Part shown: positions 1,841-27,316 of the stretch, piece by piece
Layout of the letters: each line of letters starts with the position of its first letter
Position numbering within the stretch: the stretch's first letter is position 1
Assembly: GCA_018830445.1 (NCBI GenBank)
Contig: JAHJSN010000115.1
Location: 1-44,296, forward strand
Direction: 5' to 3'
DNA: 44,296 bases
Origin: Alphaproteobacteria bacterium
GTDB taxonomy: Bacteria; Pseudomonadota; Alphaproteobacteria; Rhizobiales; Hyphomicrobiaceae
The notes under the pieces: model-generated
The model's input: only the letters and a program-made list of their open reading frames with translations
The model's database searches: none
What the model was told of the DNA's origin: nothing
Program-made: the position numbers and the translations under genes

Positions 1841-3253
1841 TCAACCCGTCCGGCCAGCCTTGACGCCACGCACGAAACCCACGAAGCATTCAGCCCACCG
1901 GTTGGCTTCGGTATCGCGTTGATGCGTGAACGTCGCCAGAACGTTGCCGCTTACGATACCGTCATGACTCCCGTCGACGCCGTGCCCGCGAAGCACGTTG
2001 AAAGCAAATGTCGTGTCCGGCGGCACATTGGTCAGCGCCGCGTAATGAAATTCATGGGCTGCGAAAGGCCGTAGTGCCGCCGGCTGAGGAACATCTCCAT
2101 GCCACGGGTGCGCAGCCGTGGCCGCCACTTTCACCAGCCCCCGGCCCTGCGGCCGCGCGTGCATTACGACGTCGGCCTCGATTACGCCGGCCATCGCGCG
2201 TTCCTCATTGCCCCAGCGTATCGAACGCGAAAGATACATAAGCCCGCCGCACTCGGCATAGATAGGAAGCCCTCCGGCAGCCGCGCTCCTGACGGCACTG
2301 CGCAAAGTCCCGTTGCGCTCAAGTTCCGCCATGTGCGTCTCGGGAAAGCCGCCGCCGATGAAGAGCGCATCGGCGGCAGGAAGTTTCGCATCGGCCAGTG
2401 GGCTGAAAAACACCAGCCTCGCGCCTGCCCGTTCCAGCGCCTCAAGGTCGTCTGGATAGTAGAAGCCGAACGCGGAATCGCGAGCCACGGCGATGACAAC
2501 CTGCTCAACGCAGCCGCTTCCGCTGCTTGGAGAAAACCCAGGCTCTCGCCAATCGGTGCCCGCCAATGGCGAGGCGGAGCGGGCGATCTCGATAACGCGA
2601 TCGACGTCGATATTATCAACCACGGCCCGCCTGAGCATTTCGATCCTATCATCGCCGCCCTCGGTCTCTTCGGGTGTCGCGAGGCCCAGATGCCGCTCGA
2701 GAATCGTCAATTCGCTGGCCCGCGACAGCGCGCCGAGAACCGGAATGTCGCTATAGCGCTCGATTGCCCCTCTGATCTTGCCCTGCTGACGCGAACCCGC
2801 AGTACGATTGAGGATGACACCGCCGATGCGCACATCCGGTTCGAACGACTGGAACCCCACCAGCAACGCAGCGATCCCGCGTGCCATCCCTTCGCAGTCG
2901 ACGACCAGAACCACCGGCGCCCCGATCAGCCGGGCAAGCGCAGCCGACGAATCCGAACCTTCGACGTCGACGCCGTCATGCAGCCCCATGTTGCCTTCGA
3001 TGAGCGAAATGTCGGCGTTGACCGCCCTCCGCGCCAGCGTCGACAGGATTTCCGCATGGGTCTGTGTGTTGAAATCGAGATTGAAGCAGGACCGGCCGGT
3101 TGCCCGCGCATGCCACATCGGATCGATATAGTCTGGCCCCTTCTTGAAGGCCTGCACGCTGAGCCCGCGCGCCGTCATGGCCGCGCCCAGCCCGACGGAT
3201 ATCGTCGTCTTGCCGGAAGACTTGTGCGATGCCGAGATAAGGATACGCGCCAT
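1841..3253 (-). CDS. dsrN: DsrN, siroheme amidase (cobyrinate a,c-diamide synthase family)
   Basis: A 470-residue homologue of CbiA/CobB. In sulfur oxidisers DsrN converts siroheme to siro(heme)amide, the cofactor form found in reverse DsrAB, using glutamine and ATP. The N-terminal half has an ATP-binding P-loop (SHKSSGKTT, residues 9-17) and KKGPDYIDPMWH, both typical of CbiA. The C-terminal half is a class I glutamine amidotransferase domain with the nucleophile Cys335 in YAECGGLMYL and a histidine in AHEFHYA. Length matches the family. It is the last gene of the dsr operon and starts 6 bases after the dsrP stop. It faces the OsmC gene across a 118-bp spacer. Confidence 0.93.
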   Translation of the reverse strand: MARILISASHKSSGKTTISVGLGAAMTARGLSVQAFKKGPDYIDPMWHARATGRSCFNLDFNTQTHAEILSTLARRAVNADISLIEGNMGLHDGVDVEGSDSSAALARLIGAPVVLVVDCEGMARGIAALLVGFQSFEPDVRIGGVILNRTAGSRQQGKIRGAIERYSDIPVLGALSRASELTILERHLGLATPEETEGGDDRIEMLRRAVVDNIDVDRVIEIARSASPLAGTDWREPGFSPSSGSGCVEQVVIAVARDSAFGFYYPDDLEALERAGARLVFFSPLADAKLPAADALFIGGGFPETHMAELERNGTLRSAVRSAAAGGLPIYAECGGLMYLSRSIRWGNEERAMAGVIEADVVMHARPQGRGLVKVAATAAHPWHGDVPQPAALRPFAAHEFHYAALTNVPPDTTFAFNVLRGHGVDGSHDGIVSGNVLATFTHQRDTEANRWAECFVGFVRGVKAGRTG

Positions 3254-13422: not shown

Positions 13423-14742
13423 CTATTCCGCAGCGTCGAGCTTGCTGCCGTCCGGACGCAGTCCCTTGCGCGCGAAGTACTTCTCCGCCTCTTCGGTGAA
13501 GTCGTCGGTCCTGACGTAGCACGACGTGCGCGGGTGCTTGACCATGTTCGGATCCGGTTCGATATCGAGTGCATCGAGGAATGCGGGCAGACCGATCCGA
13601 TCCAGGGTTTCACCGATCCGTTCATGCTCGAGCGCGTTGTCGGCGAAGAAGTCGATCACGCGCTTGGCGAAATCGTTGAGCTTCGCGTAATCCTCATCCG
13701 ACTCAAGCTTCATGAACGGGATGATCATCGTGCCCATCAGGTCGCCGACCTTGAGCGAACGCTTGCCGCCGATGAGGATCGAAACCCCCTTGTCGTCGCC
13801 GGGCGCCAGCGCCTTGTGCATCACGTTGATGCAGTGCATGCAGCGCACGCAGCTCTTGTTGTCGATATCGACCGTATCGTCGTCGTTGAGCGAGATTGCG
13901 CGCGTCGGGCACATCGCCACGACATGGTCGATCGTGTACTTGCGGCCCTGCTTGGCGACGTAGGCTTTGACCTCTTCCTGGTCGACCTTGATATTGTCCC
14001 GCCAGGTGCCGATCACTGCGAAGTCGGCGCGGTGGATAGCGTTGACGCAGTCGTTGGGGCAGCCCGAGAACTTGAACTTGAACTTGTAGGGCAGCGCCGG
14101 GCGGTGGATCTCGCCTACGTTGCTGTTGATGACGGTGCGCAGCGCGCGGGCTTCGTCGAAGTTCGACATTTCGCAGCGCGCATGCCCGACGCAGCTCATC
14201 GACGTTCTGAGCGCCGGACCGGCGCCGCCGAGGTCGAAGCCGATTTCGTTGAGCTCGTCGAATGCCTTCTGGCAGCCGGCCGTCGTCGTGCCCTGGAACA
14301 TGATGTCGCCGGACTGACCGTGGAACGCAATCAATCCTGAACCATGACGTTCCCAGATGTCGCACATTTTGCGCAACACGTCGGTATCGTAATGGAAGCC
14401 GGCAGGCGGCATCACACGCAGCGTGTGAAACTCTTTCGATTCAGGGAACTTGTCACCGACTTCGGAGAAGCGCGGAATGATGCCGCCGCCGTAACCGAAC
14501 ACCGAGACCGTCCCGCCCTTCCAGAAACCGAGGCGCTCCGTATAGGAGTGCTCGAGCTGACCGAGCAGGTCGTTCACCATTGGTGCGTATTGTTTGTCAG
14601 TGCTGTCGCGCAGACGCTTCAGGCCTGTGACAAAACTTGGCCACGGACCGCCTTCGAGCTGATCAAGTCGCGGTGTTGCGTGGTTCTCTTTGGCGGCCCC
14701 GTTTCCGTTGGCACCCTTACCTTGATCGACTGTGTCGGTCAT
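13423..14742 (-). CDS. dsrA: DsrA, reverse dissimilatory sulfite reductase alpha subunit
   Basis: A 439-residue alpha subunit of DsrAB, the core enzyme of this locus. The siroheme/4Fe-4S ligands are seen as SCVGHARCEMSN (Cys-x5-Cys) and SGCPNDCVNAI (Cys-x3-Cys). The inserted ferredoxin domain has MCPTRAI and CVRCMHCINVM. The first gene of the operon, it diverges from the 15073 gene across a 330-bp control region. The unusual N-terminus (MTDTVDQGKGANGNGAAKENHATPRLDQLEGGPWPSF in pieces) is low in complexity before the conserved part starts. Confidence 0.96.
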   Translation of the reverse strand: MTDTVDQGKGANGNGAAKENHATPRLDQLEGGPWPSFVTGLKRLRDSTDKQYAPMVNDLLGQLEHSYTERLGFWKGGTVSVFGYGGGIIPRFSEVGDKFPESKEFHTLRVMPPAGFHYDTDVLRKMCDIWERHGSGLIAFHGQSGDIMFQGTTTAGCQKAFDELNEIGFDLGGAGPALRTSMSCVGHARCEMSNFDEARALRTVINSNVGEIHRPALPYKFKFKFSGCPNDCVNAIHRADFAVIGTWRDNIKVDQEEVKAYVAKQGRKYTIDHVVAMCPTRAISLNDDDTVDIDNKSCVRCMHCINVMHKALAPGDDKGVSILIGGKRSLKVGDLMGTMIIPFMKLESDEDYAKLNDFAKRVIDFFADNALEHERIGETLDRIGLPAFLDALDIEPDPNMVKHPRTSCYVRTDDFTEEAEKYFARKGLRPDGSKLDAAE

Positions 14743-14813
14743 CGACAGCCTCCTCGTTGTTCCTGCCTCAAACGCCTGTCGAAAAAATCGACAATGACGC
14801 CGCTAGTCTTGCC

Positions 14814-14829
14814 GATGGCCTTGGCCATC
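14814..14829. promoter_or_regulatory. Inverted repeat GATGGCC-TT-GGCCATC upstream of dsrA
   Basis: A perfect 7-bp inverted repeat with a 2-base centre, about 70 bp upstream of the dsrA start. Its compactness suggests a dimeric regulator site rather than an RNA hairpin. There is no direct evidence for a ligand or protein. Confidence 0.35.
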
Positions 14830-14963
14830 GATACCCGTTACATCTTGTTGGGTCGGCGGGGTCGAAGCTATCTGGCCACGCAATTCCAAAATGTTCGGGC
14901 AATTGAGCATATTTGGCCTGCTTCATGCGCAGGCTCTCAAGTTTAACACTCGCTCCATCATAT

Positions 14964-14991
14964 CTACGAATGCAAATATTGCAATACGTAG
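14964..14991. promoter_or_regulatory. AT-rich nested inverted repeat, candidate dsr regulator site
   Basis: CTACG (14964-14968) pairs with CGTAG (14987-14991), and within it TGCAA-ATA-TTGCA (14971-14983) forms a second perfect repeat. It lies near the middle of the divergent spacer, about 80 bp before the TTG of the dioxygenase gene. ArsR-type repressors of sulfur-oxidation genes bind AT-rich inverted repeats of this general kind, but no such regulator gene is in the window. Confidence 0.45.
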
Positions 14992-15072
14992 TTGAAAAGA
15001 GTTAAGCTGACCGCCATCTGCATCCCCAACCTGTGGTAAATCGGATGCGCATCCAAAGTTCGGAGGCGGGTA

Positions 15073-16032
15073 TTGGAACGCGAAAACGGCGCCTGCACCT
15101 GCACAGCGCCAGCCCAATCGACACCATATGACCTACTTGACGCCACCCCTTTCCGGCTGTGGCGCGAGAAAAAACTTGCCGCTTTCCCCAGCAATGCTTC
15201 CGACATCGTCGTGCCGATCGAGAATATTAGCCATCCCAGCCCAACTGAGCGAGCCGAGATTTTCGACCGATTGGCCCGCGCCAACATGGCGATCTACCGT
15301 GCCCCAGCCGAACTTGCGGACGACGAACCACGCCTCAGGAGCCAGCTGATTTCGTTCCTGTCGGAATTCGGCCTCGTCAGTTGCGAAAACCACCGCTCCG
15401 CCGAGGATGATGGTTTCGTGGTCATCGAAGTGTCCGACACCCCCTCCAAGCGCGGCTTCATCCCGTATACGACCCGGCCGCTGAATTGGCATACGGACGG
15501 CTACTACAATCCCGCACAGGCGCCAATTCGCGGGATGCTGCTGCACTGCTCTCGATCGGCGGTCCGCGGCGGCGAGAACGCGCTGCTCGATCCCGAGATC
15601 GCCTATATCCGGCTGCGCGACCGCAACCCGGATTGGATCGCCGCCTTGATGCATCCCGAGGCTATGACCATACCCGCCGCCATCGAGGACGACGGCAGCG
15701 AGCGCCCGACAAGCGTCGGCCCCGTATTCATGGTAGATCCCGGTGACGGGCAACTGGTGATGCGCTATACGGCCCGCACCCGCAACATCATCTGGCGGGA
15801 CTGCAAGGCAACCCGCGCAGCCGTCGCCTTCCTCAACGATCTGCTGACGGGCCAGGGCGAGCCCCACATATTGAACGTGCGTCTGGCCCCGGGTGAGGGC
15901 CTCATCTGCAACAATGTGCTACACACGCGCACCGGCTTCGACGAGGCCGAAGGCACGCACAGGCGCGTGCTTCGCGCACGCTTTGCTTCCCGCGTCGGGG
16001 CCCGGCCAATTCCATTAGAGAGAGCAACATGA
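15073..16032 (+). CDS. TauD/TfdA-family Fe(II)/2-oxoglutarate-type dioxygenase
   Basis: A 319-residue protein with the complete iron-binding triad of TauD-like oxygenases: His140 and Asp142 (NWHTDGYYNP) and His284 (NNVLHTRTGF), with arginines 297-298 where 2-oxoglutarate would be held. Relatives act on taurine, gamma-butyrobetaine or other amines and acids; the substrate here cannot be read off. The TTG start is supported by GGAGG six bases upstream; the next in-frame ATG would remove about 70 conserved-looking residues. Its stop overlaps the next start (ATGA). Position opposite dsrA and coupling to cysG suggest a job in sulfur oxidation or DsrAB maturation. Confidence 0.85.
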   Translation: MERENGACTCTAPAQSTPYDLLDATPFRLWREKKLAAFPSNASDIVVPIENISHPSPTERAEIFDRLARANMAIYRAPAELADDEPRLRSQLISFLSEFGLVSCENHRSAEDDGFVVIEVSDTPSKRGFIPYTTRPLNWHTDGYYNPAQAPIRGMLLHCSRSAVRGGENALLDPEIAYIRLRDRNPDWIAALMHPEAMTIPAAIEDDGSERPTSVGPVFMVDPGDGQLVMRYTARTRNIIWRDCKATRAAVAFLNDLLTGQGEPHILNVRLAPGEGLICNNVLHTRTGFDEAEGTHRRVLRARFASRVGARPIPLERAT

Positions 16033-16268
16033 AACAAAGAGTCGAGCCCGATCAGGGCCTGATCCGCCTCAGCGAACTCATCATCCGTCATCCCGAAATT
16101 AGTGCGTTCAATGAACTGCTTGTCGTGGTCGCCATGGCAGCCTCCGACGGCGCGCGCTTTATCGAATACGACATCAAGCCCGATTACCGGGACACGCCGA
16201 AGCGCTGGGAAGGCCAGGTTGAACGGGCCTTCTCGCTCGGCGCACGCTATCTTGGGGATACCCCGTGA
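16029..16268 (+). CDS. Small conserved-looking protein of unknown function (79 aa)
   Basis: I do not recognise this family. It is soluble, with no membrane segment or signal and no cysteine. The middle (ISAFNELLVVVAMAASDGARFIEYDI) looks like a helix followed by a strand. The start ATG overlaps the dioxygenase stop, and its own stop overlaps the GTG of the next gene, so it is tightly coupled to both. This arrangement makes it a likely real gene and a possible subunit or chaperone of a neighbour. Confidence 0.7.
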   Translation: MKQRVEPDQGLIRLSELIIRHPEISAFNELLVVVAMAASDGARFIEYDIKPDYRDTPKRWEGQVERAFSLGARYLGDTP

Positions 16269-16507
16269 GCGAACCAGTTGTTACGGACATCCAGCAATTC
16301 GAAGCGCCATTCGGTCGAAAAGTGCTCCTGCAGGACGTCGCCCACGAGAGCGGTTTGAAGCTGATGCGCATACGCATTCGCGAAGGCACGCGCTTCACGA
16401 TTTTGGACATCGACGCTGCGACGGCACGCGAGTGGTCCGAAGCGATGCGCGAGTGGGCCGCCGCCAACGCCGCAGACGGCGGCGGAGATAGCGACCGTGG
16501 TGAGTGA
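16265..16507 (+). CDS. Small protein of unknown function (80 aa), possibly DUF6967-like
   Basis: A GTG-started 80-residue soluble protein. A compact beta-rich core is suggested by FGRKVLLQDV, LKLMRIRIREGTRFTILDIDAATAREW, followed by an acidic glycine-rich tail ([12 protein letters not shown]). No cysteine or metal motif is present. The core recalls a domain of unknown function that I think is DUF6967, from memory and not certain. The start overlaps the previous stop by GTGA, and the end overlaps the start of cysG. Confidence 0.65.
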   Translation: MSEPVVTDIQQFEAPFGRKVLLQDVAHESGLKLMRIRIREGTRFTILDIDAATAREWSEAMREWAAANAADGGGDSDRGE

Positions 16508-17963
16508 TCGCGAAATGCAGGAACTTCCGATTAATCTCAACCTGAGGGGCAAGAAGGTCGTCGTTTCCGGCGGCGGGATCATTGCTGCGCGCCGAGTGGA
16601 AGCAGCGCTCAAGGCTGGTGCCAATGTCCTTGTCGTGGCTCCCTCGCTCGGTCCCGATTTCCACTCGTTTGCCGACCACGCCTGCTTCCGCCACCGGGCC
16701 GGACAGCCTCAGCCTCGGGACTTCGAGGGAGCACTTCTCGCCTACGGCGCCAGCGACGACGATGCCACCGACCGGCTGGTCTACACGCTGGCAAGCGAAC
16801 TTGGCGTCCTCGTCAACGTTTACGACAAACCCGAATGCTGCGATTTCTCCACGCCGGCGATCCTTGACCGCTCCCCCTTGCTGGTCGCGGTTTCTTCCGC
16901 CGGCGCCTCCCCGCTGTTGGCCAGGATGATCAAGGAACGCCTCGAAAGTCTGATCCCCGCGAGCTACGGACAGCTCGCCCAATTCCTTGGAAGCATCCGC
17001 GACGAGGTCGCAACCAGAATCGCCGATCCCCGCGAACGGCGCCACTTCCTGGAGCGGATGCTCGACAGCCCGATCGCCGACCTGGCGATGGCCGGCAACG
17101 AAACTCGTGCCCGCGAACTGCTCGCCGAGGAACTCGCCGTTATCGAAGCAAAGGATGCCAGCGCCGCCACGCTGGGCGAGGTCTATCTCGTCGGCGCCGG
17201 CCCGGGCGATCCCGATCTCCTGACCTTCCGCGCCATGCGCCTGATGCAGCGCGCCGACGTCGTTGTCTACGACAGGCTCATCGGCAGTCAGGTCCTCGAT
17301 CTGGTCCGTCGCGATGCCGAACGGGTCTACGTCGGCAAGCGGCGCAATCAGCACGAACTGCCCCAGGAAGACATCAGCCGCCTTCTCGTCACGCTCGCCA
17401 AGCAGGGCAAACGCGTACTCCGCCTGAAGGGCGGCGACCCGTTCATCTTCGGCAGGGGCGGCGAGGAAATCGAGATGCTCGCCGACGAAGGCATTCCCTT
17501 CCAGGTCGTGCCCGGCGTTACCGCCGCCTCCGGCTGCGCCAGCTACGCAGGAATACCGCTCACCCACCGCGACCATGCCCAGGTCTGCATCTTCGTCACC
17601 GGCCACGCCAAGAACGGTCGCCCGGACCTCGACTGGCCGCTGCTGATCCAGCCGAACCAGACAGTGGCGATCTACATGGGGCTCGCCATGCTTCCCGGCC
17701 TGACCAGGGAATTCATCGACCGCGGCGCCAGCCTCGACACCCCCGTCGCCGTCGTCGACAACGGAACCCGTCAGAACCAGCAGGTGATTACGGGAACGAT
17801 TGCGACCATTGCCGAATCCGTTGCCGCCGCCGGAATCAAGGGCCCGGCCATAACATTCATCGGCTCCGTGGTGAGGCTGCACGAAAAATTCGCGTGGTTT
17901 CGCCCGCACGAGACCACGGCACAGAAATTCACAACCGAAATGGGCAAAGGAGGAAACATATGA
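16497..17963 (+). CDS. cysG: CysG, siroheme synthase
   Basis: A 488-residue fusion that makes siroheme from uroporphyrinogen III. The N-terminal part (to about residue 215) is precorrin-2 dehydrogenase/ferrochelatase with an NAD site ([16 protein letters not shown]). The rest is uroporphyrinogen-III C-methyltransferase with [27 protein letters not shown] and [23 protein letters not shown]. Possible starts are GTG at 16497, GTG at 16500 or ATG at 16515; the first two overlap the previous gene. Siroheme is the precursor of the DsrAB cofactor that DsrN amidates, so this gene links the divergent operon to the dsr operon. Its stop overlaps the next ATG (ATGA). Confidence 0.95.
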
Positions 17964-18298
17964 CGCTTACATTCAACGGTGAGGAAGTCGAGACGACCGA
18001 GACGGGGTATCTCGTCAATCTCGAAGACTGGAACGAGGATCTCGCGCGCGAGCTGGCCGCCGTGGAGGGCATCGAACTCACCGAGCGACATTGGGATGTG
18101 TTGAATTACCTGCGCGAGGAATACATGGACAATAACCAATCGCAGCCCAACACCCGCACCATCGTGAAAGCGATGAGTGATGCATGGGGTGAGTCGATCG
18201 ACCAGAAGGTTCTTTACGACCTTTTCCCGCTCGATCCCTCCAAGCAGGGCGGCAAGATCGCGGGCCTGCCCGAAAGCCGGCGCAAGGGTGGCTATTAA
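17960..18298 (+). CDS. DsrC/TusE-family protein lacking both C-terminal cysteines (RspA-like)
   Basis: A 112-residue DsrC-fold protein: GYLVNLEDWNEDLARELA, ERHWDVLNYLREEY and LYDLFPLDPSKQGGKIAGLP align with DsrC. At the positions of the two sulfur-carrying cysteines it has Gly (KQGGKIAGLP) and a cysteine-free tail (ESRRKGGY). It therefore cannot carry sulfur as DsrC does. Cysteine-free members of the family have been called RspA and proposed to be regulatory. The ATG overlaps the cysG stop, with AAAGGAGG upstream. It may compete with DsrC for partners or act as a scaffold or regulator. An N-terminally longer reading inside cysG has no family support. Confidence 0.9.
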   Translation: MTLTFNGEEVETTETGYLVNLEDWNEDLARELAAVEGIELTERHWDVLNYLREEYMDNNQSQPNTRTIVKAMSDAWGESIDQKVLYDLFPLDPSKQGGKIAGLPESRRKGGY

Positions 18299-18323
18299 GG
18301 CCCAAGCGGTCGCGAACAGAGAA

Positions 18324-18354
18324 CAGCAGCCCCGGCTTTCGGCTGGGGTTGCTG
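18324..18354 (+). other. Intercistronic hairpin after the DsrC-like gene
   Basis: CAGCAGCCCC (18324-18333) pairs with GGGGTTGCTG (18345-18354), with one G-T pair and an 11-base loop. It lies 26 bases past the stop of the DsrC-like gene. No U run follows, so it is more likely an mRNA stabiliser or partial attenuator than a full terminator. Confidence 0.5.
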
Positions 18355-18434
18355 CGAGGAATTCCGCCGCGTGAACATCCGCCGGACGGAAGATCGCGCA
18401 ACCAACGCCGAAACAATCCTGTGTGAGGTCTGAA

Positions 18435-19079
18435 ATGACGGAACAAGCCAACCGACTTGGCGCCGTACTGGCGGCCATTGACGCAGCCAACGCCGACGAC
18501 CCGCGCACGACGATCGTCGATGGTGAGGCGCGGCCCTATGAAATCGTCTACGCCGAGCGAATGACCGCGCGGCTCAAGTCGATGTACCCCGACGCCAGCG
18601 AGCTCCTGAGCATTGCCGCCCGCGCACAACACATCCGCCGCTGGGACATCCCGCGCGACCGCTATCCGGAAGGCCGCGCCGGTTACAACGACTGGCGCAA
18701 GGCGTGCCGCGAACATCACGGCGAGGTCGTCAGCCGTATCATGGCCGAGCACGCCTACGCGGAAGACGAGATCGCCCACGTGGTCAAGCTGCTGAAGAAG
18801 GAGCAGCTCAAGAAGGACCGCGAATCCCAGGCGCTAGAGAACGTCGTCGACGTGGTTTTCGTCGAGCACTATTTCGACGATTTCCTCGCCAAGTACTCAA
18901 CCTACACCGAAGACAAGATGATCGACATTGTCGGAAAGACGCTCCGCAAGATGTCGCCGAAGGGCCATCAGGCAGCCCTGGCGCTCGATCTGCCGGAGTC
19001 GACGCGGCGCCTCGTGATGGCCGCCGTGGAACGCGAGGCCGACACCCTCGCCAAACTCGCCAAGGTGGCCCTCGATTAG
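18435..19079 (+). CDS. DUF4202 family protein
   Basis: A 214-residue soluble, mostly helical protein. The pattern LGAVLAAIDAANADDP, ARAQHIRRWDIPRDRYP, GYNDWRK, HHGEVVSRIMAEHAY and VVDVVFVEHYFDDFLAKY is that of DUF4202. Its conserved histidines (AQH, EHH, EHY) suggest a metal site of the HD-domain kind, but no reaction is established. I chose ATG 18435; a GTG four codons earlier is possible. It is 136 bp from the DsrC-like gene with a hairpin between, and 53 bp before the Mrp gene, on the same strand. Confidence 0.8.
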   Translation: MTEQANRLGAVLAAIDAANADDPRTTIVDGEARPYEIVYAERMTARLKSMYPDASELLSIAARAQHIRRWDIPRDRYPEGRAGYNDWRKACREHHGEVVSRIMAEHAYAEDEIAHVVKLLKKEQLKKDRESQALENVVDVVFVEHYFDDFLAKYSTYTEDKMIDIVGKTLRKMSPKGHQAALALDLPESTRRLVMAAVEREADTLAKLAKVALD

Positions 19080-19132
19080 ATCTAGACCAAGTCGCCGGCG
19101 TTTGATCGGCGGCACCAACAGGAAACAACCTC

Positions 19133-20608
19133 ATGAGCACTACGAAGGATAGGGTATTGGCGCGTCTGACCGACGTCCCGGGACCGGATGGAGAAAGCAA
19201 CATCGTCGAACTCGGGCTCGTCTCCGAAATCGTTATCAAGGACGACCGCGTCTATTTCGCAATTACCGTACCAGCCCACCGCGCTGGCGAACTCGAAGCC
19301 ATGCGCGAAGCGGCCGAAGCCGCCGTTTCCGGCATCGACGGGATCGGCACGGTTACCGCCGTTCTGACGGCCGATGAGGCCCCATCGAGCGGCACCAATG
19401 GAGCTGCCGGCGCGGCTCACGCTCCCCCCGCAGGCCAACAACCTGCATCCCCGATCGCCAGCGCCACGGGCGTCCCCGGTCTGCCTGGTGTCCGCCACAT
19501 CGTGGCGGTTGCCTCCGGCAAAGGTGGCGTCGGCAAATCGACCACGGCCGTCAATCTGGCGCTCGGATTGCAGGCGCTGGGCCTCAAGGTTGGCATCTTC
19601 GACGCCGACATCTACGGACCTTCGCAGCCGCGCTTGCTGGGCTTGACCGGGCAGATGCCCCACGCGACGCCCGATGAGCAGAAGCTGTTGCCGCTCGAAG
19701 CGTTTGGCCTTGCCGTGATGTCGATGGGCTTCCTGATCGAGGAGGATGCTCCGGTGGTTTGGCGCGGCCCCATGGTGGTGCAGGCGCTCCAGCAGATGCT
19801 CTACGACGTCGCCTGGAACCATGCTGGCGATCTCGACGTGCTGGTCATCGACATGCCGCCCGGGACCGGCGACGTTCAGCTTACCCTCGCCCAGCAGGTG
19901 CCGCTGACCGGCGCTGTGATCGTATCAACGCCCCAGGATCTCGCGCTGATCGATGCCCGCAAGGGCCTCAACATGTTCCGCAATGTTGACGTTCCCGTCC
20001 TCGGCATCGTCGAGAACATGAGCTACTTCATCGCCCCCGACAACGGCAAGCGCTGGGACATTTTCGGCCACGGCGGCGCCGAGCGGGAAGCCGAGCGCCT
20101 TGGCCTGAAATTCCTCGGAGGCGTCCCGATCCACATGGATATCCGCGAACTCTCCGATGCCGGCACGCCTGTCACGGCCGTCCGCCCGGACAGCCCGGAA
20201 GCCGAGGTCTTCAAGGAAGTCGCCGCACGCGTGTGGTCGGAAGTCCAGGCATCCCAAGGCGTCGAGGCCCCCGTCATCAAGGTTTCCCCCGAGCGCGACA
20301 CCATGCGGGTGACCTACAAGGATGGCTACTCCTACGATTTTACCGCGGAATTCCTGCGCGTCGTCAGCCCCTCGGCGGAGGTTCAAGGCCATTCCGCCGA
20401 GCAGCGCGTTACCGTTCCAGGCAAGCGCGGCGTCAGGATCCGCGATCTGAAGCCCGTCGGCAAATACGCTGCCAAGATCACCTTCGACGACGGGCACGAT
20501 ACCGGCCTCTACAGCTGGTCCTATCTCCAGGAACTGGGGTTGAAAAAGGATAAGCTTTGGGCCGACTATCTAGCCGAACTCGAAACAAAAGGGCTGAGCC
20601 GCGACTGA
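19133..20608 (+). CDS. Mrp/ApbC-type P-loop ATPase with C-terminal DUF971 domain
   Basis: A 491-residue fusion. Residues 1-80 resemble the MIP18/DUF59 domain. A proline/alanine linker follows, then the Mrp/Nbp35 ATPase with deviant Walker A GKGGVGKS (129-136), DADIYGPSQPRLLG and VIDMPPGTGDVQL. Residues from about 381 on (VIKVSPERDTMRVTYKDG to LGLKKDKLWADYLAELE) form a DUF971 domain, the type found at the N-terminus of gamma-butyrobetaine hydroxylase. Mrp proteins carry and transfer Fe-S clusters. The CxxC usually found after ENMSYF is replaced by APDN (301-304), as in many alphaproteobacterial Mrp. Fe-S delivery to Dsr proteins would be a natural role, by inference. Confidence 0.92.
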   Translation: MSTTKDRVLARLTDVPGPDGESNIVELGLVSEIVIKDDRVYFAITVPAHRAGELEAMREAAEAAVSGIDGIGTVTAVLTADEAPSSGTNGAAGAAHAPPAGQQPASPIASATGVPGLPGVRHIVAVASGKGGVGKSTTAVNLALGLQALGLKVGIFDADIYGPSQPRLLGLTGQMPHATPDEQKLLPLEAFGLAVMSMGFLIEEDAPVVWRGPMVVQALQQMLYDVAWNHAGDLDVLVIDMPPGTGDVQLTLAQQVPLTGAVIVSTPQDLALIDARKGLNMFRNVDVPVLGIVENMSYFIAPDNGKRWDIFGHGGAEREAERLGLKFLGGVPIHMDIRELSDAGTPVTAVRPDSPEAEVFKEVAARVWSEVQASQGVEAPVIKVSPERDTMRVTYKDGYSYDFTAEFLRVVSPSAEVQGHSAEQRVTVPGKRGVRIRDLKPVGKYAAKITFDDGHDTGLYSWSYLQELGLKKDKLWADYLAELETKGLSRD

Positions 20609-20742: not shown

Positions 20743-21294
20743 CTACTTCAGCGCGATTTCGAGCGCTTGGTAGGCCCGCGCGAAATGCCTGAGTGAGAAT
20801 TCGACACTCATCTTCTTGTCATCGGAATCGGCAAAACCGATCTGGATCTTCTTGTTGGTCTTCAAAGCGGCAAGCAGCTCATCGTCGAGCGGCAGTTTTG
20901 CAAAGCACCCAGCCCAATTGCACTGATCCAGGCGCGAACGGTAGGCCAGCGTGCTGAGGCTGCTCGTTCCGTCCATGACGGCCAGCGAAACGCCCGACTG
21001 AAGGTCGACCGCGGCTGGCAGCTGGATGCGGATGTAGGACTTTTCATTTTTGAAAAGTCGGATCTGGATGCTGACGTGCTTGCCTCGCGATGGACCGCTT
21101 TTCAGCCGAACGCGCCTGATAAGCCGGCAGCCTTCGACGATCCCGTCGCTGGCCTTCGTACAGCTCTGTATCCAGCCGGCGCGGATCTTCGCTTTGGTGT
21201 TCTGCGCCGAGGTCCGGGTCGCAGGCTGCAAAACGAAGGCGGCAATTGCAGCCGCCAGGCAAATGTAGGCGTTCCTACTCAAACGTGTCCCCAT
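20743..21294 (-). CDS. IalB-family (invasion-associated locus B) secreted protein
   Basis: About 183 residues with an N-terminal hydrophobic signal (AYICLAAAIAAFVLQ, then TRTSAQ), so probably periplasmic. The body matches the IalB family: an N-terminal WIQSCTK, paired cysteines (EGCRLI, LDQCNWAGCFAKLPLDDELLAALKTNKKIQIGF) and beta-rich segments. The family is common in Alphaproteobacteria and mostly uncharacterised outside Bartonella; here no link to virulence is implied. I chose ATG 21294 (MGTRLSRN), which puts the signal at the very N-terminus; a longer start at 21351 exists. It stands alone, converging on the Mrp gene. Confidence 0.8.
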   Translation of the reverse strand: MGTRLSRNAYICLAAAIAAFVLQPATRTSAQNTKAKIRAGWIQSCTKASDGIVEGCRLIRRVRLKSGPSRGKHVSIQIRLFKNEKSYIRIQLPAAVDLQSGVSLAVMDGTSSLSTLAYRSRLDQCNWAGCFAKLPLDDELLAALKTNKKIQIGFADSDDKKMSVEFSLRHFARAYQALEIALK

Positions 21295-21494
21295 TTCTAG
21301 CCCTCGCCCTTCGCCGTCTATCCGGCGCCGTACGCTCAATTTCTGCGGCATCCGGGCATCGCGATGCGGCCATAACTAATCCAAACCGCAAATGGATGGA
21401 ACATGCCCGCGCCGCCCGATGGCGATCAGGACCAGCCGATTCGCAACGTGCTTAATCGGCCGCCCTGCCGAAAGCGCCATCCCTCGAATTGCCA

Positions 21495-21522
21495 GACGCC
21501 ATGATAAAGACGCCATGATAAA
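21495..21522. repeat. Two tandem copies of a 14-bp unit
   Basis: GACGCCATGATAAA occurs twice without a gap (21495-21508 and 21509-21522). It is probably a slippage duplication. It lies in non-coding DNA and has no evident function. Confidence 0.8.
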
Positions 21523-21634
21523 CAAGGCAACCATGTGAAGACCGGTTGCAACCGTTAACCCGTGGCGCGACCAGCGAGCACGTCGGCTGGATTGGCGAAC
21601 ACTCGAACCGCGATGCAGTGCCCGCCCCAACAAA

Positions 21635-21665
21635 GCACCCCGGAAGACCAATGCTTCCGGGGTGC
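21635..21665 (-). terminator. Rho-independent terminator of the tctABC operon
   Basis: A perfect 12-bp stem, GCACCCCGGAAG (21635-21646) with CTTCCGGGGTGC (21654-21665), and a 7-base loop. On the minus strand it is followed by TTTGTTG. It lies about 45 bases beyond the tctC stop and is the best-formed terminator in the window. Confidence 0.8.
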
Positions 21666-21710
21666 AAGTCGGGCGGATCTTGGCCCGCCGAGCGATGTTG
21701 TTTTTACAGA

Positions 21711-22667
21711 TCACAAGCCCTTCAGAAGGTCCTTGAGATAGTCCTCGCGGCGCTTCCACATCGCCTGGACTTCCTCCCGGTTCATGATCTTGAGCGGCGA
21801 ACCGCCCGACTTCATCTGTTTTGCCACCTTGGCATCCTTGAACATTTCCGGCACGGCCTTGGCAAGCTTGTCGATGACGTCCTGCGGGGTTCCCTTGCGG
21901 ACCATCAAGCCGCGGAAGTTCACCGACGAGTCGTCGACATCGAACCCGGCTTCCTTGAACGTCGGCACGTCAGGCAGGAACTCCGTATTCCGCTCAATGT
22001 CGGCAATCGCGAGGATCTTCAAGGAATCCTGGCTGCGGAAGGCATCCGACAGATTGTTGACACCGGCCATCACCTGACCTCCGATGACCGATTTGAGAGC
22101 AGGAGCCCCGCCCTTGTGCGGCACATAGGCGAGCTTGACGCCGGTCGCCTTTTCCATCTGCAGGTAGGCGATGTGGTGGCCAACGAACAGACCGGCACCC
22201 GATACCGTCACCTTTCCAGGGTTTTCCTTGGCGAAGTTGACGAGGTCGGCGACGGTGTTGAACGGGCTGTCCTTGCCCACCACCAGAACCGCCGGGTCCG
22301 CGCCCCAGTTGGCAATCGGCTCGAGATTATCGATCGTGTACTTGGTCTCGAATTTGATCGATTGGGCGATGAAGTGGGGAATGTTGTAGGCGGCGAGCTC
22401 ATAGCCGTCGGTACCGCCGTTGGTGGCAAAGGCTGTCCAGCCGACCTTGCCGCCGGCACCAGGCTTGTTGACGATGACGATCGGCTGGCCGAGGTATTTC
22501 TCGTCGGCGGCCATCATGGTCACGATGCGTGCCTGGAAGTCCGTCGCCCCGCCAGGGCTGTAGGCGACCATCACGCTGACCGGGCGATCAGGATAGCCCT
22601 CTGCAACCGACGGTCCGGCGATGGCAACAGAAGCCAAACCGGCCAGGCCTGCTATGAAACGTTTCAT
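21711..22667 (-). CDS. TctC-like periplasmic solute-binding protein (TTT family), copy 1
   Basis: A 318-residue periplasmic receptor of a tripartite tricarboxylate transporter. It has a signal peptide (MKRFIAGLAGLASVAIAGPSVAEG) and the family opening YPDRPVSVMVAYSPGGATDFQAR, then VNKPGAGGKVGW and LAYVPHKGGAPAL. Such proteins bind carboxylates; the ligand is not predictable. It is the third gene of the operon, 72 bp after tctB. The order A-B-C is the reverse of the second copy at 35947-39095. Sequence differs clearly from that copy, so they are not a recent duplication. Confidence 0.93.
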   Translation of the reverse strand: MKRFIAGLAGLASVAIAGPSVAEGYPDRPVSVMVAYSPGGATDFQARIVTMMAADEKYLGQPIVIVNKPGAGGKVGWTAFATNGGTDGYELAAYNIPHFIAQSIKFETKYTIDNLEPIANWGADPAVLVVGKDSPFNTVADLVNFAKENPGKVTVSGAGLFVGHHIAYLQMEKATGVKLAYVPHKGGAPALKSVIGGQVMAGVNNLSDAFRSQDSLKILAIADIERNTEFLPDVPTFKEAGFDVDDSSVNFRGLMVRKGTPQDVIDKLAKAVPEMFKDAKVAKQMKSGGSPLKIMNREEVQAMWKRREDYLKDLLKGL

Positions 22668-22739
22668 TGTGTCGTATCCTCCATCTTTCCTTGGTTGTAC
22701 CGCTCCGCAGTTTGGTGATTGCCGGGATCTGTGCCCCGT

Positions 22740-23210
22740 TTAGATGAACATCCCGCGTGGAGTCTGCACGCGCAGCCCCATCGCGAAAACCACATAGATC
22801 AGCGTCATGAACCCAGCCGTGACGGCAACACGCATCAGCCACGTCGAAGCCAGCTTGTGCGACTTCGGATCGTAAAGCGAATAGAGCACGAAGAAGGCCA
22901 GCGTCGCTGCCGCATAGAAGCCGAGGGTGGGGATCGCCACGAAAATGTAGGCAAGCATCAGCGCGATCGCCGGCGCCGTATTCTGCAATTGCTCGACACT
23001 CATTCCCGAGCCGGTCCGGTTGGCTCCGCGCAAGGCCCGCAAGAAAGCGACAACCGCGAGCCCGACGAACGCAACCGCGATCAGCTGCGGAAACAGATAG
23101 GGCTGCGGATCCTCGACACTGAAGCTGACCAGTGCAATCCACAAGCCAAGCGCCAGCACGACGCCGGCTGCAACCGCCTGCTGCAGTCGCCCAGCAACGT
23201 TATCGCTCAT
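22740..23210 (-). CDS. TctB-like small membrane subunit (TTT family), copy 1
   Basis: A 156-residue membrane protein with four hydrophobic segments (AVAAGVVLALGLWIAL, LIAVAFVGLAVVAFL, APAIALMLAYIFVAIPTLGF, VTAGFMTLIYVVFAMGL). VEDPQPYLFPQLIAVAF is typical of TctB. The ATG at 23208-23210 overlaps the tctA stop (ATGA), so translation is coupled. The longer open frame running back through tctA is a shadow. Confidence 0.9.
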   Translation of the reverse strand: MSDNVAGRLQQAVAAGVVLALGLWIALVSFSVEDPQPYLFPQLIAVAFVGLAVVAFLRALRGANRTGSGMSVEQLQNTAPAIALMLAYIFVAIPTLGFYAAATLAFFVLYSLYDPKSHKLASTWLMRVAVTAGFMTLIYVVFAMGLRVQTPRGMFI

Positions 23211-24718
23211 GTTGCTGCCTCCCCGACGGCATCGAGCCGTCGCATGCGGATCTCGGTCGCAACCGAATAGACGATCGAGAGGACGACCAGCGAGATCAGC
23301 ACGAGGTTCATGGTGCCGAGACAGAAGTAGGAGAACATTCCATCTCCCGCCTGCGCGATGATGCGACCCTGCACGTAGTTCGATTCGGCAATCGGGCCCA
23401 GGATCACGCCGAGCACCAGCGGCGCCGGACTGAACCCGTACTGCTGCAGGAAATACATACCGATGCCGAGCATCAGCATCACCACCACATCCGACTGTGA
23501 ATTCTGAACCGAGTAGGCGCCGAATACGGCCAGAACCAGAATACCGCTCGCCAGAATCGCCGGTGGAATCCGCACGACATGGGCAGCGAGCCCCGCGATA
23601 TAGAGCCCGAAGATCATCATCAGGAACTGCCCGACGAGCAGCGAGTTGATGAAGGCCCAGGCGACGTCGCCATGCTTCTCGAACAGGTTCGGGCCGGGGA
23701 ATATTCCGTGAATGAGCAGCCCGCCCAGAAGTACCGCCGCCGTCGGACTTCCCGGCACCGACAGCGTCAGCAGCGGAACCAGCGACGGACCTACCATCGC
23801 ATTGTTGGCGGTCTCGGCAGCCACCACGCCTTCGGGATGCCCGGTTCCGAATTTTTCCGAATCCGGCGAGAACCTGCGCGCCTGATCGTAGGAGACGAGG
23901 CCGGCGATCTGGCCGCCAGCCCCAGGAATAAGCCCGATAATGACGCCGACGATGCTGCCGATAGTCAACGCGCGCGGGAACCCCAGCGTGATCTTCGCCG
24001 ACTTCCACACGCTGTGCGGCTTTACCGATACGAGTTCGAACGTGCGCTTGTGCCTGCCGCCCTCGAGCATCTCGATGACCTGCGGGATGGCAAACAACCC
24101 GATGAGTGCAGCGATGATGTGCACTCCGCCTTCGAGATGCTCCGAGAAGATGAACCGCTCGACGCCCTGGATGGAATCGTAGCCGATCATCGCGATCCAC
24201 AGGCCGACACACCCGGCCAGCAGACCCTTCACGACAGACTTGGAATCAAGTGAGCCGATGATCGTTACGCCGAGAATGGCGATCCAGAACAGGTGCGAAG
24301 GCCCGAAGCTCAGCGCCCATTGCGCCAGCACTGGCGTAAGGAATATAAGGACGAGAACGCCCAGCACGCCGCCGATGAACGATGCAATGAAGCAGAGCTG
24401 AAGCGCCTTCGCCCCCTCGCCCTTGCGCGCCATCGCATAGCCGTCAAGAGCCGTCGCGATATTCGCCGGTGCCCCGGGAATCTTCAGAAGAATTGCGCTG
24501 ACCGCGCCGCCGGCGACGGTGGCCGTATAGGCCGCCCCCAGCAGCATCAGGCCTTGCGCCGGATCCATATGGAACGTGAAGGGAATGAGCAGCGCCACCG
24601 CCATCGTCGGTGACAGGCCGGGTGTCGCCCCCAGCAGCAGGCCGCCGATCGTGCCGGCGCACAGTATTGCCATCGAGGACAGCGTGAAGACCGGTCCGAA
24701 GTGGTACAGAAACTCCAT
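23207..24718 (-). CDS. TctA-like large membrane subunit (TTT family), copy 1
   Basis: A 503-residue permease with about 11-12 hydrophobic segments. It holds the TctA signatures GATPGLSPTMAVALLIPFTFHMDPAQGLMLLGAAYTATVAGG (quoted in part), KIPGAPANIATALDGY and GLIPGAGGQIAG. It forms the translocation pathway with TctB, taking solute from TctC. It is the first gene of the operon and reads away from the LacI-family gene across 176 bp that hold a LacI-type operator. Confidence 0.94.
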   Translation of the reverse strand: MEFLYHFGPVFTLSSMAILCAGTIGGLLLGATPGLSPTMAVALLIPFTFHMDPAQGLMLLGAAYTATVAGGAVSAILLKIPGAPANIATALDGYAMARKGEGAKALQLCFIASFIGGVLGVLVLIFLTPVLAQWALSFGPSHLFWIAILGVTIIGSLDSKSVVKGLLAGCVGLWIAMIGYDSIQGVERFIFSEHLEGGVHIIAALIGLFAIPQVIEMLEGGRHKRTFELVSVKPHSVWKSAKITLGFPRALTIGSIVGVIIGLIPGAGGQIAGLVSYDQARRFSPDSEKFGTGHPEGVVAAETANNAMVGPSLVPLLTLSVPGSPTAAVLLGGLLIHGIFPGPNLFEKHGDVAWAFINSLLVGQFLMMIFGLYIAGLAAHVVRIPPAILASGILVLAVFGAYSVQNSQSDVVVMLMLGIGMYFLQQYGFSPAPLVLGVILGPIAESNYVQGRIIAQAGDGMFSYFCLGTMNLVLISLVVLSIVYSVATEIRMRRLDAVGEAAT

Positions 24719-24833
24719 TGTCCGCCCGTCGCTTTAGCTTGCGTTTCCTGCGCGGCGTGCCGTTGTTCTTAGGGTGTCCAGAGTGACATCTGGTGGCCGC
24801 CTGTTCCATAGTGCTACCGAATGAAAATGCCTC

Positions 24834-24847
24834 TGCAAACGTTTTCA
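24834..24847. promoter_or_regulatory. LacI-family operator
   Basis: TGCAAACGTTTTCA is a near-perfect palindrome centred on CG (one mismatch), the form bound by LacI/GalR-family repressors. It lies about 50 bp before the lacI-type gene and about 115 bp from tctA, so it could control both. An adjacent inverted repeat at 24850-24880 (GAACATTTG with CAAATGCTC) may add to regulation. Confidence 0.7.
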
Positions 24848-24849
24848 TC

Positions 24850-24880
24850 GAACATTTGCCGGGCTGAAGTTCAAATGCTC
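24850..24880. promoter_or_regulatory. Inverted repeat before the LacI-family gene
   Basis: GAACATTTG (24850-24858) pairs with CAAATGCTC (24872-24880) with one G-T type mismatch and a 13-base centre. It lies next to the LacI-type operator, 14 bases before the regulator start. It may be a leader hairpin or a second regulatory site. Confidence 0.35.
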
Positions 24881-24894
24881 CCGGAGGTCGGGCC

Positions 24895-25926: not shown

Positions 25927-25947
25927 TTCGTTGGCCGGTTGCGATTG

Positions 25948-26568: not shown

Positions 26569-26590
26569 CGGAAAACCTCAATGTTTCGGG

Positions 26591-27274: not shown

Positions 27275-27316
27275 CGCGCGCCCCTTTTTCGGACTCCCTT
27301 CGAGTCCGTTCCCGCC

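What the first reader, a model, noticed from the sequence alone, without database searches (positions are those of the whole stretch)
15073..20608. Undescribed dsr-linked accessory operon divergent from dsrA
Seven genes read away from dsrA: a TauD-like dioxygenase, two small unknown proteins, CysG, a cysteine-free DsrC paralogue, DUF4202 and Mrp-DUF971. The first five overlap in ATGA/GTGA junctions. CysG makes the precursor of the DsrAB cofactor, so the operon has a clear functional tie to sulfur oxidation. The dioxygenase, the two small proteins and DUF4202 have no known Dsr role. Together they could be a maturation or cofactor module for DsrAB and the Fe-S proteins. This is the best candidate for a new system in the window.
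Basis: partly seen in the sequence, partly recalled or inferred. Interest (0 to 1): 0.78.

Follow-up and report, generated by a model that had tools for sequence, protein, structure and literature searches.

The report
Conserved helper operon for sulfur oxidation
Next to the genes for a key sulfur-oxidising enzyme sits a set of helper genes, two of them small and of unknown function, that was found almost only in bacteria carrying that enzyme, so it is very probably a working part of the pathway whose job has still to be found.

Summary
The operon is real: TauD-like oxygenase, two ~80-residue proteins (sm1, DUF6967), CysG and a cysteine-free DsrC relative, divergent from dsrA, then DUF4202 and Mrp-DUF971 after gaps. 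In 249 genomes of the order, DUF6967 is in 29 of 29 dsr genomes, sm1 in 27, the oxygenase in 26; each in 0 of 220 others at the cut-offs used. In a second set, the oxygenase is in 85 of 92 dsrA genomes and 5 of 182 others, and divergent in all 57 pairs within 5 kb of dsrA. The DsrC relative belongs to a supported clade ending KGGY, without the sulfur-carrying cysteine. "Undescribed" is only partly right: the oxygenase is dsrQ of Lenk et al. 2012, as quoted in PMC7596348. My searches found nothing in print on DUF6967 or DUF4202. DUF4202 is not Dsr-specific as a family. Best reading: an accessory operon supporting rDsrAB production or activity; the link is near certain, the mechanism inferred. 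DUF6967 models like a PUR nucleic-acid-binding repeat, so a regulatory rival stands.

The parts
15073..16032 (+). TauD/TfdA-family Fe(II)/2-oxoglutarate oxygenase, = dsrQ of Lenk et al. 2012 by family and place; H140, D142, H284 kept
   Evidence: PF02668 1.3e-20; triad kept in the 112 loci matched at E 1e-40
16029..16268 (+). sm1, 79 aa, unnamed small protein family
   Evidence: no Pfam/NCBIfam hit; 46-row alignment A5; in 27 of 29 dsr and 0 of 220 other genomes of the order at E 1e-5
16265..16507 (+). DUF6967 protein, 80 aa, modelled as four strands and a helix, resembling PUR repeats
   Evidence: PF22295 1.3e-28; AF2 pLDDT 92.6; Foldseek 3k44 TMq 0.69, prob 1.00, E 0.17
16497..17963 (+). cysG, sirohaem synthase
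   Evidence: NF007922 591 bits over cut-off 400; operon copy in 11 of the 12 dsr genomes among relatives
17960..18298 (+). cysteine-free DsrC-family protein ending KGGY
   Evidence: PF04358 2.3e-33; KGGY group of 42 distinct rows, support 99/94
18324..18354 (+). 14-bp hairpin between the DsrC-like gene and DUF4202; no T run after it
   Evidence: fold of the 139-nt stretch, z -2.41, 3 of 200 shuffles as good
18435..19079 (+). DUF4202 protein of the type found in dsr genomes
   Evidence: PF13875 8e-68; 62-78% identical to the copies of six other dsr genomes, at most 52.5% to the 13 compared copies of non-dsr genomes
19133..20608 (+). Mrp/NUBPL-type Fe-S carrier ATPase with C-terminal DUF971 (GBBH-like N) domain
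   Evidence: PF10609 7.8e-99, PF01883, PF06155 7.4e-25; behind dsrN and DUF4202 in G027 and G030
14743..15072 (.). divergent intergenic region between dsrA and the operon, with an imperfect palindrome at 14964-14991
   Evidence: a palindrome of type ATATTnnAATAT in 8 of 52 such regions, two of them the same DNA
13423..14742 (-). dsrA
   Evidence: TIGR02064 557.9 bits
12161..13276 (-). dsrB
   Evidence: TIGR02066 496.7 bits
10529..10867 (-). canonical dsrC with both C-terminal cysteines (stop-to-stop frame, stop codon excluded)
   Evidence: PF04358 8.8e-45; translation; class 'canon'
1841..3253 (-). dsrN-like gene (CobB/CobQ-type amidotransferase; the dsrN name rests on that and on its place)
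   Evidence: PF07685 9.3e-34; homologues in dsr clusters of relatives

Best explanation
This is an accessory operon of the reverse-type Dsr sulfur oxidation system, inherited with rDsrAB and read divergently from a shared upstream region. Its most likely job is to support production or working of rDsrAB in aerobic cells. Steps: (1) CysG makes sirohaem; DsrN, encoded in the same window, amidates it for DsrAB (CysG identity shown by profile; the DsrN role is from the literature; the link between them is inferred). (2) The KGGY DsrC-like protein keeps the DsrC family signature but not the cysteine that carries sulfur, so it should dock where DsrC docks on DsrAB and plug or shape the site without chemistry, as an assembly placeholder or a gate (inferred). 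(3) DsrQ is an active-looking Fe(II)/2OG oxygenase that acts on a component of this pathway rather than on nutrient sulfonates (inferred). (4) sm1 and DUF6967 are small partners of these proteins (inferred). DUF4202 and Mrp-DUF971 are a second dsr-linked pair, Mrp probably supplying Fe-S clusters (family inference). That the operon belongs to the Dsr system I hold at about 0.95; the confidence below is for the mechanism.
For: Co-occurrence in the order: DUF6967 over cut-off in 29 of 249, all 29 with dsr genes (27 by dsrA; G044 by dsrB; G091 by a 171-base dsrA-like start at its contig end); sm1 in 27 and TauD in 26 of the 29; 0 of 220 others each at the cut-offs used. The 29 lie in 15 families. 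Second set (class of the Sedimenticola MAG G293): TauD in 85 of 92 dsrA genomes and 5 of 182 others; 57 of 57 pairs within 5 kb are divergent. Of 80 named TauD loci, 63 have dsrA in the flank and 15 of the other 17 genomes have a full or partial dsrA elsewhere. CysG lies in the operon in 11 of 12 dsr relatives and is the only CysG found in 9. KGGY end: 43 frames, 37 without any cysteine, none with the penultimate one. TauD triad kept in 112 loci. Three assemblies of 1.0-1.1 Mb keep TauD, sm1 and the KGGY gene beside dsrA. Six dsr genomes without TauD keep sm1 and/or DUF6967 beside dsrA.
Against: No experiment or expression data. TauD is not found in 3 of 29 and 7 of 92 dsr genomes, sm1 in 2 of 29; of the 80 named loci, 45 show DUF6967 and 38 sm1, so no single part is indispensable. 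cysG shows in 20 of 80 named loci and is missing from the operon in 5 of 29 fetched dsr genomes of the order, which weakens a cofactor-only reading. Five of 182 genomes have the oxygenase without dsrA, two of 17 likewise. The PUR-like fold of DUF6967 and a Cas6-family neighbour elsewhere point to nucleic acid, not to cofactor. Docking of the KGGY protein on DsrAB was not modelled. Genomes are related, so the Fisher p values overstate independence.
Confidence: 0.42

Rival explanations
1. A regulatory operon. DUF6967 binds single-stranded nucleic acid like a PUR repeat, in Beta/Gamma lineages together with a Cas6-family RNA-binding protein; the KGGY DsrC relative reports the state of the DsrC pool; DsrQ senses oxygen or 2-oxoglutarate. 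The operon tunes dsr expression or translation rather than building the enzyme.
For: DUF6967 model: pLDDT 92.6; the first eight Foldseek rows are PUR proteins, from four PDB entries. Cas6/Cmx6 model TIGR02807 over cut-off in all five Cas6-like proteins tested; 44 of 131 loci hold one. Divergent, shared regulatory region.
Against: Foldseek E-values are 0.17 or worse and the DUF6967 profile finds no PUR chain in the PDB set. The Cas6-like gene is in none of the stretches fetched from the window's order, nor in the window. CysG is not a regulator. No target RNA or site is known.
Confidence: 0.25
2. DsrQ releases sulfite from internal or ambient sulfonates (the published speculation), and the rest of the operon is incidental.
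For: Family TauD; stated as speculation in PMC7596348 section 17.
Against: Nearly restricted to dsr genomes, where DsrAB makes sulfite from sulfur rather than needing it; the nearest curated models are TmpA, trimethyllysine and butyrobetaine dioxygenases, all far below cut-off, and no taurine dioxygenase model was hit; the only PDB sequence relative at 1e-5 is TmpA. It does not explain sm1, DUF6967 or the KGGY protein.
Confidence: 0.08
3. The operon serves sulfur transfer or tRNA thiolation: the DsrC-like protein is a TusE relative and the rest support it.
For: TIGR03342 TusE/DsrC family 99.2 bits over 53.5.
Against: TusE carries sulfur on a C-terminal cysteine (recalled; PMC3397948 says it for DsrC), absent in all 43 KGGY frames; the TusE equivalog cut-off is not met (92.5 of 191 bits).
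Confidence: 0.04
4. Hitch-hiking: genes carried with dsr by horizontal transfer without a role in it.
For: The window's genome is the only one of 9 genus members searched with dsrB over cut-off, so the region was gained or lost within the genus; its KGGY gene groups with Gammaproteobacterial ones, with moderate support (92/81).
Against: Retention over loci of three classes, absence from 220 non-dsr genomes of the order, intact active sites, and retention in 1.0-1.1 Mb assemblies.
Confidence: 0.04

Closest known systems
dsrQ (TauD-like gene of Lenk et al. 2012, quoted in PMC7596348)
   Same: Same family, same divergent place upstream of dsr, same kind of hosts (aerobic sulfur oxidisers). PMC7596348 also reports it with dsr in Myxococcales, other Deltaproteobacteria and a Verrucomicrobiales genome.
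   Different: The quoted passage names only the tauD-like gene and a 'hyp'; sm1, DUF6967, the KGGY DsrC relative and the co-occurrence counts are added here. The original paper could not be read.
DsrC / TusE / RspA family of sulfur carriers
   Same: DsrC family by profile (PF04358, TIGR03342).
   Different: Both functional cysteines absent, KGGY end in all 43 frames found, own group in the tree. RspA, a name for DsrC relatives without the cysteines, is recalled (Venceslau et al. 2014) and comes from no call; whether it covers this group was not tested.
DsrV/DsrW sirohaem genes of other dsr clusters (PMC6018796, passage)
   Same: Sirohaem biosynthesis genes linked to dsr.
   Different: Here one fused CysG in a divergent operon with unknown proteins.
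PUR-alpha repeats (PDB 3k44, 8chw, 5fgo, 8cht)
   Same: The predicted fold of DUF6967 resembles one repeat.
   Different: No sequence similarity detected; binding untested.

Membership tests
DsrQ (dsr-linked TauD-like oxygenase) | TauD/TfdA family match | tested here: met
   PF02668 1.3e-20
DsrQ (dsr-linked TauD-like oxygenase) | upstream of and divergent from dsrA | tested here: met
DsrQ (dsr-linked TauD-like oxygenase) | Fe(II) HxD...H triad (motif recalled for the TauD family) | tested here: met
   H140, D142, H284
Taurine/sulfonate dioxygenase | oxygenolytic release of sulfite from sulfonates | not testable with these tools
   no curated taurine dioxygenase model hit, which is not a test of activity
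Functional DsrC | penultimate C-terminal cysteine (DsrC-Cys111 in A. vinosum, PMC3397948) | tested here: not met
   ends KGGY; 0 of 43 KGGY frames have it
Functional DsrC | second cysteine (Cys100 position) | tested here: not met
   QGG in the window protein; 6 of 43 KGGY frames keep a cysteine there
TusE/DsrC superfamily | TIGR03342 / PF04358 match over cut-off | tested here: met
   99.2 over 53.5 bits; 115.3 over 24.9
CysG sirohaem synthase | full-length equivalog match over cut-off | tested here: met
   NF007922 591.2 over 400 bits, residues 10-460
DUF6967 (PF22295) | Pfam match over cut-off | tested here: met
   99.1 over 27 bits
PUR nucleic-acid-binding family | PUR fold | tested here: inconclusive
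   Foldseek prob 1.00 but E 0.17, TMq 0.69; VIA-align not available
PUR nucleic-acid-binding family | sequence relationship to PUR proteins | tested here: not met
   no PUR chain in the PDB profile search up to E 5
Mrp/ApbC Fe-S carrier | NUBPL-type P-loop NTPase domain | tested here: met
   PF10609 7.8e-99
Mrp/ApbC Fe-S carrier | NCBIfam ApbC equivalog cut-off | tested here: not met
   341.7 of 348 bits
Dsr-specific gene set | absent from genomes without dsr | tested here: met
   own order: DUF6967, sm1, TauD 0 of 220 at the cut-offs used. Not strict in the second set (TauD in 5 of 182); DUF4202 fails it (15 of 47 non-dsr relatives)

The most novel reading that the evidence does not exclude
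rDsr sulfur oxidation depends on an unrecognised accessory complex: a DsrC mimic whose KGGY arm fills the DsrC channel of DsrAB, held with sm1, and a PUR-like DUF6967 protein that, with a Cas6-type protein in Beta/Gamma lineages, ties the enzyme to an RNA. Oxygen enters through DsrQ, which modifies a member of the complex. That would make Dsr control post-transcriptional and recruit a CRISPR-processing protein fold into energy metabolism.
Probability: 0.13. Interest if true: 0.87.

Novelty: new variant of a known kind. Interest (0 to 1): 0.6.

Why it matters
The Dsr pathway drives much of the oxidation of stored and elemental sulfur in aquatic systems and in animal symbionts (general knowledge), and its gene list is usually taken as known. 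Here at least two small protein families and a cysteine-free DsrC clade go with rDsrAB in loci from three classes of Proteobacteria, and in the window's order the small proteins were not found where it is absent. Either they are needed for the enzyme or they control it; both can be tested in organisms that can be grown and altered in the laboratory. The set may also give markers for oxidative-type Dsr in metagenomes.

Tried and rejected
Sulfonate breakdown as the role of the oxygenase: kept as a weak rival. DUF4202 as Dsr-specific: rejected as a family, 15 of 47 non-dsr relatives have it; its dsr-type subgroup stands on identity only; two of the 22 matches (G013, G017) had no locus and were not compared. 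Terminator scan: 5 found against 5.4 in shuffles, nothing to use; promoter scan 1 against 1.1. Operator motif in 52 divergent regions: an ATATTnnAATAT palindrome in 8 regions against at most 2 for any pattern in 20 single-base shuffles; L065 and L172 are the same DNA, so 7; four half-site types with spacers of 0-14 gave nothing over the set limits. sm1 fold search in the PDB: no match. PDB sequence searches with DUF6967 and sm1: best E 0.025 and 0.013, taken as chance. CysG copy number as a test of a dedicated supply: the window's genome and G033 have two, nine dsr relatives only the operon copy, G047 none, 30 of 47 non-dsr relatives have one or more, so it does not discriminate. One search used a wrong Pfam number recalled from memory (DUF4194) and was wasted.


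Full report
OBSERVATION. The seven genes are present as described. Three junctions are ATGA or GTGA overlaps (16029, 16265, 17960); the fourth, DUF6967 to cysG, overlaps by 11 or 8 bases if a GTG start is used and not at all if ATG 16515 is. DUF4202 and Mrp follow after 136 and 53 bases, the first gap holding a 14-bp hairpin without a T run. Profile searches give PF02668 for the first gene, nothing for sm1 (16029-16268), PF22295 (DUF6967) for the third, CysG over its equivalog cut-off, PF04358/TIGR03342 for the DsrC-like protein, PF13875 for DUF4202 and PF10609 with PF06155 for the last.

CO-OCCURRENCE IN THE WINDOW'S ORDER. Among 59 relatives (window genome included), dsrB is over its cut-off in 12 and DUF6967 in the same 12. 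In 249 genomes drawn from the order, DUF6967 is over cut-off in 29 and dsrA in 27. The two extra DUF6967 genomes are G044, which has dsrB over cut-off and dsrA pieces at two contig ends, and G091, whose contig breaks 171 bases into a dsrA-like frame beside the operon (no dsrA match at 1e-30). Counting these two as dsr genomes, 29 of 29 have DUF6967 and 0 of 220 others do at the cut-off; one other genome, G093, has a sub-cut-off match of 23.3 bits and no dsrA. The alignment of sm1 finds 27 of the 29 (not G047, G094) and 0 of 220 at E 1e-5. The oxygenase alignment finds 26 of 29 (not G105, G170, G221) and 0 of 220 at E 1e-50. The 29 fall in 15 families as labelled by the tool. Fisher p values are 1.6e-38, 3.8e-34 and 2.8e-32 but treat related genomes as independent, and many of the genomes are incomplete.

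PLACE. I have regions of 29 dsr genomes of the order (window genome, 11, 17; not the same 29 as above). By tblastn maps, the operon is divergent from dsrA in 25, follows dsrN in the direction of the dsr genes in 3 (G045, G092, G128) and lies on a separate contig in 1 (G049). cysG is in the operon in 24 of the 29 (not G047, G060, G094, G168, G196). The three genomes without the oxygenase keep sm1, DUF6967 and cysG at the same place.

BEYOND THE ORDER. In 63 of 80 dsrA lies in the held flank; of the other 17 genomes, 15 have a dsrA match at 1e-30 elsewhere (12 over the cut-off, 3 partial) and two do not (G278, G292). So 78 of 80. Three of the 80 are the same DNA as G loci. Profile searches find DUF6967 in 45 and sm1 in 38 of the 80; by title, Alpha loci mostly show both, Beta loci DUF6967, Gamma loci sm1. 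In a second set, 274 genomes of the class of G293 (the genome of L126, a Sedimenticola MAG), 92 have dsrA at 1e-60 and 90 the oxygenase at 1e-50; 85 have both, 7 dsrA only, 5 oxygenase only, 177 neither. In 57 genomes the two lie within 5 kb, all 57 divergent, gaps 172-751 bases but for one of 2598; in the other 28 they are further apart or on different contigs. Three assemblies of 1.0-1.1 Mb (G335, G438, G551) have oxygenase, sm1, a Cas6-like gene and the KGGY gene beside dsrA; their completeness was not told, so 'reduced genome' is a guess. Of the 7 dsrA genomes without oxygenase I fetched 5: three keep DUF6967 or sm1 plus the Cas6-like gene beside dsrA, and in two (L181, L182) the contig ends beside dsrA, so nothing can be said.

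THE DsrC-LIKE PROTEIN. Among 149 DsrC-family frames in 131 loci scanned, 91 were classed as canonical by their end and 43 end KGGY; 37 of the 43 have no cysteine in the matched stretch, 6 keep one at the first position, none has the penultimate one. In a tree of 91 rows (35 of 88 canonical rows sampled) the 42 distinct KGGY rows form one group with support 99/94; the tree program warns that 113 columns are few. The window's copy lies with those of G027 and G030 (85/72), next to three Gammaproteobacterial ones (92/81). [quoted passage not shown] Their fixed end suggests that the arm still does something; docking in the DsrC channel of DsrAB is my inference.

THE OXYGENASE. H140, D142 and H284 are kept in the 112 loci matched at E 1e-40, one locus being split over two alignment rows (three of the loci repeat DNA of others). 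The nearest curated families are TmpA and the carnitine-pathway dioxygenases, far below cut-off; TmpA is the only PDB relative at 1e-5. It is by family and place the gene called dsrQ by Lenk et al. 2012, as quoted in PMC7596348 section 17 (this section read in full), with sulfonate breakdown as a speculation; PMC6018796 (passages) lists DsrQ as of unknown function. Lenk et al. is not held, so I cannot say which further genes it mentions.

THE SMALL PROTEINS. AlphaFold2 models are confident: sm1 pLDDT 89.7, DUF6967 92.6. sm1 has no credible match in the PDB (best E 3.0). DUF6967 is four strands and a helix; its first eight Foldseek rows are PUR-alpha repeats from four entries, best TMq 0.69, probability 1.00, but E 0.17, and its sequence profile finds no PUR protein. 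This is a lead to nucleic-acid binding, not a result. In Beta/Gamma loci a neighbour is a Cas6-family protein: PF09559 at 8.2e-63 for one and TIGR02807 over cut-off for all five tested; a sixth protein, L122 11119-11820, is a different unnamed protein and matched nothing. 44 of 131 loci have the Cas6-like gene, 36 of them among the 80 named loci, none among the loci of the window's order.

cysG, DUF4202, Mrp. The operon copy of cysG is present in 11 of 12 dsr relatives; in nine it is the only CysG found, in the window's genome and G033 there is a second (some of these genomes are only 73-88% complete). Sirohaem genes linked to dsr are known (DsrV, DsrW in PMC6018796). The window's dsrN-like gene is a CobB/CobQ-type amidotransferase. 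DUF4202 is in 7 of 12 dsr and 15 of 47 other relatives. Copies in the six other dsr genomes are 62-78% identical to the window's, the 13 compared copies of non-dsr genomes at most 52.5%. In G027 and G030 the order is dsrN, DUF4202, Mrp; in G033 and G055 DUF4202 is beside dsrN; in G047 DUF4202 is beside Mrp; in G049 it stands alone. So this pair is dsr-linked, at the other end of the cluster elsewhere.

READING. That the operon is part of the Dsr system is close to certain from distribution and place. How it works is inference. I favour support of rDsrAB: sirohaem from CysG, a cysteine-free DsrC mimic at the DsrC site, an oxygenase acting within the pathway, small partner proteins. A regulatory reading, from DUF6967 and the Cas6-like neighbour, is the main rival.

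LITERATURE. Full-text searches in the held library: DUF6967 and DUF4202, none; DsrC with RspA and TusE, one unrelated paper; dsrAB, sulfur oxid, TauD, cysG together, none; rDsr, dsr cluster, cysG, dsrN, none with three; dsrV and dsrW with sulfur, none as whole words. Searches gave listings, three of them cut at 15 rows; in the dsrQ listing (15 of 16 shown) only PMC7596348 and PMC6018796 are about sulfur metabolism. PMC11406059, PMC13293266 and PMC5573963 were searched by term only. No search was made for the KGGY end or for sm1, which has no name to search by. Subscription journals are mostly not held, so absence from these searches is weak evidence of absence from print.

Noticed in passing
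L117:11096-11788, L096:7400-8056, L175:4804-5460 and 41 other loci: A Cas6/Cmx6-family protein (PF09559, TIGR02807 over its equivalog cut-off in the five tested) is a common member of the divergent dsr operon in Beta/Gamma loci, with a conserved glycine-rich end; by that model it would be annotated as type I-MYXAN CRISPR Cas6 although it sits with dsr genes.
   Followed up: partly
L126:9369-11641 (Sedimenticola MAG): Away from dsr, an oxygenase homologue lies between a radical SAM protein and a protein fusing DUF971 to a ThiS-like domain; DUF971 is also the C-terminal domain of the window's Mrp.
   Followed up: no
L034:7330-7635 and L036:10863-11189: A further DsrC-family gene on the opposite strand between DUF6967 and cysG, ending WSTG, keeping only the first cysteine; five such proteins form their own group.
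   Followed up: partly
L045:12306-12941, L047:4347-4910, L053, L054, L056: Another DsrC-like group with ends FGSTY or FGSVR near dsr clusters.
   Followed up: no
window 14964-14991 and 7 distinct divergent regions of relatives: Palindrome of type ATATTnnAATAT between dsrA and the operon, imperfect in the window; a possible operator.
   Followed up: partly
window 18324-18354: Strong 14-bp hairpin between the DsrC-like gene and DUF4202 without a T run.
   Followed up: no
L064:9369-9986, L081:11094-11855, L117:12439-12642: Three more unnamed protein families recur in Beta/Gamma dsr operons (205, 253 and 67 aa; homologues in 31, 4 and 8 other loci), with no Pfam match over cut-off.
   Followed up: no
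G000 against G001-G008: The window's genome is the only one of nine genus members searched that has dsrB over cut-off, so the dsr region was gained or lost within the genus; some of the others are incomplete.
   Followed up: partly
G047:C234:9399-10292 (L161): G047 has a second oxygenase copy away from dsr and DUF6967; several genomes of the second set also have two copies.
   Followed up: no
window 20743-27994: Beyond the operon lie an IalB-family gene, a tripartite tricarboxylate transporter (TctC, TctA), a glutathione S-transferase and a fumarase C-terminal domain protein, with no visible tie to sulfur.
   Followed up: no
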